From Candidatus Doudnabacteria bacterium (GTDB lineage: Bacteria; Patescibacteriota; Doudnabacteria; UBA920), in NCBI GenBank assembly GCA_903908535.1, contig CAIVSE010000084.1, positions 1-33,709 of the forward strand: 33,709 bases of DNA, given 5' to 3'. Positions 13,174-15,109 of the stretch are shown piece after piece. The notes under the pieces were generated by a model. It had not been told where the DNA came from and did no database searches. It saw only the letters and a program-made list of their open reading frames with translations. How positions within the stretch are numbered: position 1 is the stretch's first letter; every line of letters begins with the position of its first letter. A program made the position numbers and the translations under genes.

Positions 13174-13509
13174 TTAAAATAAGCTTGGTAACCCCCAATA
13201 CTTTCTCAAATCTGCTTGATTGTCGTGAAATTGTATATTTTCGTTTATGGCCTTTAAATCCAAAATTAGTTCGTCGTCGTTCATTATTTCATACGGAGCC
13301 GCCTTCCAATAACTTTTTTCACCAACAGTCCTGCGGAATGTCAGCCCCCATAATTGTGTGGCATAACCAGAACCAGCGGTATTACCTCTGTAGAAGTCGG
13401 TTATTTCCGTAGTAGGTATAGGCCAGATTTTTATGCCTAAGTAGGTACGTGAAAGAATTCCATTTTTCAATTTTAAAAATCCTGTCGCTGCAATTATAAA
13501 TTGCCCCAA
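13174..13509 (-). CDS. Hypothetical protein, possibly PH-domain-like
   Basis: 111 aa, composition typical of a real soluble protein. The beta-rich N-terminal half (LKNGILSRTYLGIKIWPIP then TTEITDFYRG) resembles bacterial PH-like domains in pattern only. The C-terminus is acidic and ends KYWGLPSLF. The first in-frame start is TTG at 13509, but a TGTTATAAT element lies directly beside it, so the true start may be further in. The gene is convergent with recX (16 bp between stops). Family unproven. Confidence 0.45.
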   Translation of the reverse strand: MGQFIIAATGFLKLKNGILSRTYLGIKIWPIPTTEITDFYRGNTAGSGYATQLWGLTFRRTVGEKSYWKAAPYEIMNDDELILDLKAINENIQFHDNQADLRKYWGLPSLF

Positions 13510-13548: not shown

Positions 13549-13603
13549 TTTGTTATGTTTTTGTTATCTTTTTGTTAAGGTTTTGTTATCTCCACCTTGC
13601 TAT
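13549..13603 (+). repeat. Four-unit 11-bp array, copy B
   Basis: Inverted copy of the array at 9771-9825: read on the minus strand, units ATAACAAAACC, TTAACAAAAAG, ATAACAAAAAC and ATAACAAAT at exact 11-bp steps. It lies directly upstream of the broken DUF3800 gene, in the same relative orientation as copy A has to the tRNA-like sequence. Confidence 0.75.
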
Positions 13604-13612
13604 GGTTAAAAG

Positions 13613-14030
13613 GTGAGAAGGCAAATCCAAAAATTATATTGCTTTGTGGATGAAACCGGCCAGGACGCGGGGCCGGATGTTTTTATTGTGGTCGCTGCCG
13701 TAATTATAAGGGATGTGGATAATTTTAGGCAGCTTTTGCTTAAAATAGAGAGCCATTAGTGGTGCCGTTAAAAATAGTAAAATTGATCCATATGTCGCTT
13801 CTGTATATGTTGATGGAATAGACAGGGCAAAGGCTTCTGAACTTACAGCCACGCTAAGGCAAGAAGGTTTGAAGCTTAGGCACGTTAAGTCGGCCAGGGA
13901 TGAGAGTGAGCCAATTATCAGGTTTGTTGATAGGTGGGCGGGTTGTATTCGTTTGGCTTTGAAAGGTGATAAGGAATTCCAAAAAATTGTTTCTAACTCA
14001 ATTAGTAATGGAGATTTACAACAAATGTAA
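13613..14030 (+). pseudogene. Broken DUF3800-family gene
   Basis: Two pieces in different frames. The first, GTG at 13613 to TAG at 13757-13759, encodes 48 residues with the family's opening YCFVDETGQDAG, an acidic (putative nuclease-fold) motif, then FIVVAAVII. The second, 13761-14030, shifted by +1, encodes 89 residues with DPYVASVYVDGIDRAKASEL, then a stretch ending VKSARDESEP and FVDRWAGCIRLALKGD, typical of the C-terminal half. The expected middle (roughly 70 residues) is absent, so an internal deletion plus frame change destroyed it. The DUF3800 assignment is from memory of the family. Confidence 0.7.
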
Positions 14031-14130
14031 AACAGGCCCCATAAAGGGGCCTGCCGTTCCCAGCTATTCCGATTGTTTTTAGAAACCGGACCAATCTCCG
14101 CCTACGACGGGCCTTCGCTGGAAATCCAAT
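14028..14130 (-). ncRNA. Candidate structured small RNA downstream of htpX
   Basis: A complete transcription unit of about 100 nt on the minus strand: promoter at 14164-14137, terminator at 14053-14033. Between them an outer stem (14117-14123 with 14057-14064, one bulge) encloses two hairpins (CCG-CGG near 14112-14100 and CCGGTT-AATCGG near 14089-14069). There is no open reading frame of note. It does not match my memory of SRP RNA, 6S, tmRNA or RNase P. It could also be an untranslated tail of htpX. Confidence 0.5.
14033..14053 (-). terminator. Terminator on the minus strand
   Basis: A perfect 8-bp stem, CAGGCCCC (14033-14040) with GGGGCCTG (14046-14053), 5-nt loop. On the minus strand it is followed by TTTTACATTTG. 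The plus strand lacks a T-tract, so it serves the minus strand (candidate RNA and/or htpX). Confidence 0.75.
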
Positions 14131-14136
14131 ATAATC

Positions 14137-14164
14137 ATTTTATCAGGCTCAATATAAATGTCAA
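14137..14164 (-). promoter_or_regulatory. Sigma70 promoter just after htpX
   Basis: On the minus strand, TTGACA (14164-14159), 16-nt spacer, TAAAAT (14142-14137). It begins 7 nt beyond the htpX stop codon and points away from it, toward the candidate small RNA. Confidence 0.6.
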
Positions 14165-14170
14165 GTAAAA

Positions 14171-15109
14171 CTACAAGTTCATCTCCCTTAACCTTTTTAC
14201 TCTGTCTTCAATTGGCGGGTGGGTGTTGAACAGCCCGGCGAACCAGCTGCGGCCGCCGTGGGCGGATTTTTGTTCATCAGAAGTTTCAGGACGGTCCTGA
14301 TGGAACGGGTTAACTATAAATAAATGCGCGGTGGCGTTGTTGGCTTCCACTAAAGGACGGGGGTCGGCAGAAATTTTTTCCAAAGCGCTGGCCAGGCCTT
14401 CCGGGTATCTGGTCAGTAATGCACCGGATGCGTCTGCTAGATATTCTCTTTGGCGTGAGACCGCCATTTTAATTAACACAGCAATAATAGGGGAAAGTAT
14501 AGCCAGTAATAATCCGGCTGCCAGCAAGATCATGCCAATGCCGCCATCATTTTTGTTGCCGCGCCCGCGTCCTCCAAAAAAGGAAAAACGCAAAAACATA
14601 TTGCCTAAAAGTGTTACTGTTCCCACTAACACGACCACCAAAGTCATGACCCGAATATCATAATTGCCAATATGGGAAAGTTCGTGCGCCGTGACGCCCT
14701 CCAGTTCGGTTTTGTTCAAACGGGAAAGTATACCGGTGGTGTAGCAAATTACCGCGTGCTTGGGGTCGCGTCCGGTGGCAAAAGCGTTAGGGGAAGGGTC
14801 GTTGATAATGTAAATTTTCGGCGTGGGTATGCCGGCGGTGATGCACAAATTTTCTACAATATTATAGAGGTCGCGGTTGGCGCTTTTGTCCACTTCCTGG
14901 GCTTTACTCACGGCCAAAGTTACGGAGTCCGAAAAGTAATAAGAAAACAGGGCGGAAAATAAACTAAAGAACACCGCAATATATAAAATGGCGGGATCCT
15001 GGAAGTAGTCCGCAAAAACGTAACCTATAAGGCTAATTACGATTAAAAAGCTGAATATTAAAATCCAGCTTTCGCGCTTGTTTTTATTGATGAACTGGTA
15101 GGTGGTCAT
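14171..15109 (-). CDS. htpX: HtpX-type membrane zinc metalloprotease
   Basis: 312 aa. Membrane-embedded M48 endopeptidase for quality control of membrane proteins. Two N-terminal membrane segments (about 15-35 and 40-60) precede the zinc site HELSH (His142, Glu143, His146). Two more segments follow (about 153-172 and 190-212), then SRQREYLADASG, which supplies the third zinc ligand. A C-terminal NTHPPIEDRVKRLR is typical. The start lies 27 bp after the lemA stop, so the lemA-htpX pair is probably an operon, a common arrangement. Confidence 0.93.
   Translation of the reverse strand: MTTYQFINKNKRESWILIFSFLIVISLIGYVFADYFQDPAILYIAVFFSLFSALFSYYFSDSVTLAVSKAQEVDKSANRDLYNIVENLCITAGIPTPKIYIINDPSPNAFATGRDPKHAVICYTTGILSRLNKTELEGVTAHELSHIGNYDIRVMTLVVVLVGTVTLLGNMFLRFSFFGGRGRGNKNDGGIGMILLAAGLLLAILSPIIAVLIKMAVSRQREYLADASGALLTRYPEGLASALEKISADPRPLVEANNATAHLFIVNPFHQDRPETSDEQKSAHGGRSWFAGLFNTHPPIEDRVKRLREMNL

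What the first reader, a model, noticed from the sequence alone, without database searches (positions are those of the whole stretch)
14028..14164. Possible new structured small RNA behind htpX
A good sigma70 promoter 7 nt after the htpX stop and a terminator about 100 nt later bracket a sequence that folds into a closed outer stem with two inner hairpins. It does not look like a known housekeeping RNA.
Basis: partly seen in the sequence, partly recalled or inferred. Interest (0 to 1): 0.65.

Follow-up and report, generated by a model that had tools for sequence, protein, structure and literature searches.

The report
New class of DUF3800-partner small RNA
The small RNA is real, but it does not belong to htpX: it is a new class of the little-understood RNAs that sit tail-to-tail with DUF3800 nuclease-fold genes, left intact here beside a broken copy of its partner gene, and it probably binds and restrains that protein like an antitoxin.

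Summary
Observation confirmed. On the minus strand lie a near-consensus sigma70 promoter (TTGACA-16-TAAAAT, 14164-14137), a three-way-junction RNA (14124-14057) and a terminator (14055-14031). No Rfam family matches. The fold is evolutionarily real: 25 homologues, 15 of 19 pairs with two-sided changes, core junction bases invariant.

On the plus strand, converging on the RNA, lies a wrecked DUF3800 gene (13613-14030; about 50 codons lost plus a frameshift). Among 45 relatives of this gene found by protein alone, 43 have a small three-way-junction RNA convergent at the 3' end. RNA class follows protein clade exactly: type A (this one) with one clade, type B with the rest, branch support 100/100. 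Related loci carry the published DUF3800-II and -III RNAs. So this is a new class of a known kind, the DUF3800 RNAs.

The protein model has an RNase H fold. Genes almost never lack the RNA, while RNAs often lack an intact gene, and one orphan RNA is better conserved than its flanks in two species. This asymmetry, and the proven AbiF/RCd22 analogue, point to an RNA antitoxin or inhibitor, not yet shown. Here the RNA is probably orphaned.

The parts
14159..14164 (-). -35 hexamer TTGACA of the RNA's promoter
   Evidence: Consensus scan. A TTGACA-like promoter recurs at a similar distance upstream of most type A RNAs; mean best score 9.7 of 12 against 7.7 for shuffled sequence.
14137..14142 (-). 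-10 hexamer TAAAAT with extended -10 TG; start site inferred at about 14130
   Evidence: Consensus scan; start site is inference.
14022..14130 (-). inferred small RNA transcript, about 105-109 nt
   Evidence: Promoter and terminator positions; no expression data.
14057..14124 (-). three-way-junction core: P1 14124-14117 with 14064-14057; P2 14110-14106 with 14102-14098; P3 14090-14084 with 14074-14068; junctions GAAGGC 14116-14111, AGATTGG 14097-14091, ATA 14067-14065
   Evidence: Covariation over 25 homologues; junction bases AAGG, GA and TA invariant.
14031..14055 (-). intrinsic terminator hairpin; its short T-run overlaps the stop codon of the DUF3800 reading frame
13613..13759 (+). 5' fragment of the broken DUF3800 gene (GTG start inferred, VDETGQD motif, stop TAG at 13757)
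   Evidence: Pfam DUF3800 E 0.0023, below cut-off; 50-56% identical to residues 1-46 of intact type A relatives.
13749..14030 (+). 3' fragment of the broken DUF3800 gene in another frame, stop TAA at 14028
   Evidence: E 1.6e-23, 55% identity to an intact homologue; matches residues 95-187 of relatives, so about 50 residues are missing between the fragments.
14171..15109 (-). htpX (Peptidase_M48), upstream neighbour on the same strand; not a conserved neighbour of the RNA
   Evidence: Pfam E 4.7e-30; no htpX at the other fetched RNA loci.

Best explanation
The element is the RNA half of a two-gene unit: a DUF3800 gene (RNase-H-fold protein of about 190 residues) and a convergent, independently promoted small RNA made of one three-way junction plus a terminator. 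The RNA is a new class (called type A here: GAAGGC-[P2]-AGAUUGG-[P3]-AUA) of the known DUF3800-associated RNAs. Most likely working: the DUF3800 protein binds the conserved junction of its own RNA class, and the RNA keeps the nuclease-fold protein inactive until the balance is upset, as an RNA antitoxin does. In this genome the protein gene has been destroyed while promoter, RNA and terminator are intact, so the RNA is now an orphan: either a relic, or kept as protection against incoming DUF3800 units. Shown: the structure, the convergent linkage, the class-to-clade match, the RNase H fold of the model, the broken gene. Inferred: expression, binding, toxicity and neutralisation.
For: Structure and covariation. 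Linkage: of 45 loci found by DUF3800 protein alone, 43 have a type A or B RNA on the opposite strand, starting from 20 nt inside the stop to 177 nt beyond it, median about 30 nt; a 44th (L048) has one where the frame runs on past the match. Partner specificity: type A proteins form one side of a branch with 100/100 support, crossing several phyla; models R1 and R2 do not hit the same RNA, and meet only in tandem A+B RNAs and mixed clusters. Kind: published DUF3800-II (RF02961, E 1.4e-10) sits convergent at the 3' end of a DUF3800 gene in the same phylum with the same P1/P2/P3 layout, and DUF3800-III (RF02962, E 1.6e-6, just under its cut-off) lies next to a type A RNA. Fold: model pLDDT 91.4, pTM 0.88; best PDB matches RNase H2, RNase HI, EndoV, Argonaute. 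Asymmetry: genes almost never lack the RNA; of 13 strong type A RNAs in the phylum scan, 6 have no type A gene beside them and G365 has no DUF3800 in a genome rated 100% complete; a syntenic orphan in two species is 94% identical against 74-78% for flanks, p 7e-6. Analogue: AbiF_Cd is toxic and is neutralised by direct binding of the structured RNA RCd22 (PMC12373285).
Against: No expression, binding or toxicity data. The RNA is separately promoted and convergent, unlike type III or AbiF systems, where RNA and toxin share an upstream promoter. DUF3800 toxicity is nowhere documented in the papers found. No relative of the type A protein on plasmids or phages and none confirmed in viral contigs, where addiction modules are often seen. 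Orphan RNAs could also be simple relics or have other roles. Some broken genes in MAGs may be assembly errors, though the window's large deletion is not of that sort.
Confidence: 0.55

Rival explanations
1. The RNA is a guide or scaffold: DUF3800 is an RNA-guided or RNA-activated nuclease or recombinase (in the manner of IS110 with bridge RNA, TnpB with omegaRNA, or Argonaute), and the RNA is part of its active complex.
For: RNase H fold with Argonaute, EndoV and integrase among matches; near-obligate RNA partner; DUF3800 domains occur beside Cas12 (PMC10910872).
Against: The only strongly variable part is the short P3 helix and loop, itself base-paired with covariation, with no spacer-like stretch; few copies per genome, all divergent; no flanking inverted repeats in the window; orphan RNAs persist without a protein.
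Confidence: 0.2
2. A trans-acting small RNA with its own cellular role, merely travelling with DUF3800 genes.
For: Orphan copies, one under selection.
Against: Near-universal linkage and clade matching; patchy distribution, 14 of 380 phylum genomes.
Confidence: 0.15
3. The RNA is a cis-antisense (type I-like) regulator that pairs with a read-through 3' end of the convergent DUF3800 mRNA.
For: Strictly convergent, a few tens of bases from the stop codon.
Against: Antisense action needs no fold, yet pairs covary and junction bases are invariant across phyla; wobble polarity favours a folded minus-strand RNA; RNA class follows protein clade.
Confidence: 0.08
4. Only the 3' untranslated region and terminator of htpX, folding by chance.
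For: It lies directly behind htpX, and read-through transcripts would contain it.
Against: Homologues at 1e-18 to 1e-6 in other genomes, none beside htpX; covariation.
Confidence: 0.02

Closest known systems
DUF3800-I to -XI RNAs (Weinberg et al. 2017; Rfam, e.g. RF02961 DUF3800-II, RF02962 DUF3800-III)
   Same: Small structured RNA next to a DUF3800 gene; DUF3800-II has the same layout P1, 6-nt junction, P2, P3, short junction ending UA, P1', and lies convergent at the 3' end of its gene.
   Different: No Rfam DUF3800 model hits the type A sequence, even at E up to 10; its junction sequences (GAAGGC, AGAUUGG) and partner protein clade are distinct.
AbiF / RCd22 RNA antitoxin (abiF motif RF03085; PMC12373285)
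   Same: Structured RNA of about 100 nt with sigma70-type promoter and terminator beside a toxic protein; there shown to be an antitoxin by direct binding.
   Different: Abi_2 (Cas13-related) protein rather than RNase H fold; the RNA lies upstream and is co-transcribed, here it is convergent and separately promoted.
Type III toxin-antitoxin (ToxIN)
   Same: RNA presumed to restrain a nuclease-fold protein.
   Different: No repeat array in the short form, no co-transcription, unrelated toxin fold.
IS110 recombinase with bridge RNA
   Same: RNase-H-like protein with a structured partner RNA (PMC11208160, seen as an abstract).
   Different: No transposition features found; the protein is about 190 residues with the RNase H-like fold alone.

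Membership tests
DUF3800-associated RNAs (kind) | Located beside a gene with a DUF3800 domain | tested here: met
   Broken DUF3800 gene convergent in the window; 43 of 45 protein-found loci carry a type A or B RNA.
DUF3800-associated RNAs (kind) | Conserved secondary structure with covariation | tested here: met
   15 of 19 pairs changed on both sides, 0 of 500 shuffles.
Rfam DUF3800-I to -XI (existing classes) | Score at or above the Rfam gathering cut-off of one class | tested here: not met
   No hit to the type A RNA; so it is not a member of an existing class.
Type III / AbiF-like RNA toxin-antitoxin | RNA and toxin co-transcribed, RNA upstream | tested here: not met
   RNA on the opposite strand with its own promoter.
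Type III / AbiF-like RNA toxin-antitoxin | Protein toxic, neutralised by direct RNA binding | not testable with these tools
   Needs experiment; only the gene/RNA asymmetry was examined.
RNase H superfamily (partner protein) | RNase H-like fold | tested here: met
   AlphaFold2 model of the intact relative L038, pLDDT 91.4; RNase H2 3p5j E 6.2e-5, many RNase HI.
RNase H superfamily (partner protein) | Intact conserved residue set in the window's own copy | tested here: not met
   About 50 residues deleted, including the position of invariant K54/W55, and the frame broken.
IS110/bridge RNA or other mobile element | Terminal repeats or recent multicopy insertion | tested here: not met
   No inverted repeats; one or two divergent RNA copies per genome.

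The most novel reading that the evidence does not exclude
DUF3800 genes and their convergent three-way-junction RNAs form a widespread RNA-protein toxin-antitoxin or defence system of a new layout (separately promoted, convergent RNA inhibitor of an RNase-H-fold effector), with many co-evolving RNA classes and selectively kept orphan RNAs acting as anti-addiction or immunity genes.
Probability: 0.4. Interest if true: 0.8.

Novelty: new variant of a known kind. Interest (0 to 1): 0.6.

Why it matters
In the papers found here, DUF3800 RNAs still have no assigned function. The results give three testable handles: near-obligate convergent gene-RNA pairing, exact matching of RNA class to protein clade across phyla, and orphan RNAs kept without the gene. 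They add at least two RNA classes missing from Rfam and predict which RNA should bind which protein, so the binding and toxicity questions can be settled with small constructs in a laboratory strain.

Tried and rejected
DNA-level search of 60 relatives found only the window itself, so DNA similarity alone would have suggested an isolated RNA. Rfam scans of window, type A and type B loci gave no class match to the type A RNA; weak hits such as Atu_C8 and Phe_leader rest mainly on the terminator. htpX 3'-UTR idea rejected. Viral contigs: pattern matches but no confirmed relative. Plasmids and phages: none. PADLOC: only a weak DUF3800_VII match for a type B protein. PDB by sequence: nothing credible. 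Repeats around the unit: only short AT-rich ones. The 2017 paper that defined DUF3800 RNAs is not held, so its content rests on Rfam names and on citations in PMC10910872 and PMC11701678.

Full report
What is in the window. The minus strand carries, directly behind htpX (14171-15109), a sigma70-type promoter TTGACA-16-TAAAAT (14164-14137, 11 of 12 matches, extended -10 TG) and a terminator hairpin at 14055-14031. The stretch between folds into a closing stem with two inner hairpins. Energy alone is suggestive only: z is -2.8 with the terminator and about -1 without it. Rfam 15 has no match at the gathering score, and up to E 10 on this stretch only chance hits, mainly to the terminator.

The overlooked partner. 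On the plus strand, ending at 14030 and thus touching the RNA's terminator, lies a broken DUF3800 gene. Its 5' fragment (13613-13759) has the VDETGQD motif (Pfam DUF3800, E 0.0023, below cut-off); the 3' fragment (13749-14030) is 55% identical to an intact homologue of about 190 residues. Against relatives the fragments cover residues 1-46 and 95-187, so about 50 codons are gone and the frame is broken. It is the only DUF3800 detected in this genome, which is 88% complete.

Homologues of the RNA. A sensitive local search around DUF3800 homologues found the same RNA beside several of them. Five sequences gave model R1. In 380 genomes of the phylum R1 hits 14 genomes, including strong hits not used to build it (G365 7.8e-15; a second copy in the window's own genome, contig C52, 1.6e-10). 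Twenty-five homologues keep 94.1% of pair cells; 15 of 19 pairs have changes on both sides; the covariation score is 0.572 against 0.261 for shuffles, with 0 of 500 reaching it, and RNAalifold finds the same structure on that alignment. That alignment was fitted to the model, so it leans towards the structure, but the five-sequence MAFFT alignment behaves the same way. Junction bases AAGG, GA and UA are invariant, and G-U outnumbers A-C 30 to 8, which marks the minus strand as the RNA.

Linkage to DUF3800. Taking DUF3800 loci by protein alone (45 loci in GTDB genomes), 43 have a convergent RNA whose near edge lies from 20 nt inside to 177 nt beyond the gene's stop, median about 30 nt; L048 makes 44 if its read-on frame is allowed for; only L077 has none. 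Two classes appear. Type A (GAAGGC...AGAUUGG, the window's class) goes with one protein clade; type B (GAAUAC...GGUGNCC, model R2) goes with the others. A protein tree puts all 12 type A proteins that could be read through on one side of a branch with 100/100 support, although they come from MAGs labelled Uhrbacteria, Paceibacterota, Sungiibacteriota, Omnitrophica, Acidobacteria and Verrucomicrobia. MAG labels may include binning errors.

What kind it is. DUF3800-associated RNAs were reported in 2017 (cited in PMC10910872; Rfam names in PMC11701678). In the same phylum one DUF3800 gene has the published DUF3800-II RNA convergent at its 3' end with the same three-way layout, and DUF3800-III lies next to a type A RNA. 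Type A itself matches none of the Rfam classes. It is therefore a new class of a known kind.

The protein. An alignment of 38 relatives shows invariant or near-invariant D12, E13, E45, K54, W55, D118, D147, E148, D157. The AlphaFold2 model of L038 has pLDDT 91.4 and matches RNase H2, RNase HI, EndoV, UvrC and Argonaute folds, agreeing with a published statement that DUF3800 has an RNase H fold.

Mechanism. Near-obligate pairing and class-to-clade matching point to physical partnership (inference). The direction of the partnership is suggested by asymmetry: genes almost never lack the RNA, whereas of 13 strong type A RNAs in the phylum scan six lie without a type A gene within the fetched flanks and one more sits at a contig end. 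G365 has no DUF3800 at all. The window, L049, L053, L078 and L079 have disrupted genes but a detectable RNA, though some of these may be assembly errors. One orphan RNA is syntenic in two species (L035, L112) and 94% identical while flanks are 74-78% identical, Fisher p 7e-6. This is what an antitoxin-like inhibitor would show. The closest proven system is AbiF_Cd, toxic and neutralised by direct binding of the structured RNA RCd22 (PMC12373285). The layout differs: here the RNA is convergent and has its own promoter. Guide RNA, antisense and independent-RNA readings remain open and are listed as rivals.

For this genome the likeliest state is an orphaned RNA: promoter, fold (68.4 bits, within the 66-81 range of the best-scoring type A RNAs) and terminator intact, partner gene dead.

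Noticed in passing
L034 (window genome contig C52), about 19-203 minus; also L027, L030, L036: A longer RNA: a type A and a type B three-way junction in tandem, then a CCAAC/GUUGG hairpin and a CUAAG/CUUAG hairpin. Not in Rfam; seen in genomes of the window's own family; no type A DUF3800 gene beside them within the fetched flanks.
   Followed up: partly
L013, L075, L079: DUF3800 genes whose convergent RNA is a type B-like junction followed by the same two-hairpin tail.
   Followed up: no
L051-L082, model R2: Type B RNA, a second class absent from Rfam, convergent to DUF3800 genes in CPR, Chloroflexota, Planctomycetota and other MAGs; 15 of 380 phylum genomes.
   Followed up: partly
L093, L097, L099, L100, L102: Other DUF3800 subfamilies also have a promoter-like and structured-looking sequence convergent at the gene's 3' end; probably further unlisted RNA classes.
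   Followed up: no
L027 1588-1815 minus: Three tRNA genes lie directly upstream of a tandem A+B RNA on the same strand.
   Followed up: no
L007/L058 (G126:C14): A cluster of one type A and several type B RNAs around one type B DUF3800 gene.
   Followed up: no
L029 324-466 minus: LOOT RNA (RF03000), 50.7 bits, about 1 kb from an orphan type A RNA.
   Followed up: no
window 13174-13509 minus: Open frame of 111 aa with no Pfam match, next to the broken DUF3800 gene.
   Followed up: no
window 13549-13591: Short tandem TTTTTGTTAT-like repeats just upstream of the DUF3800 fragment.
   Followed up: no
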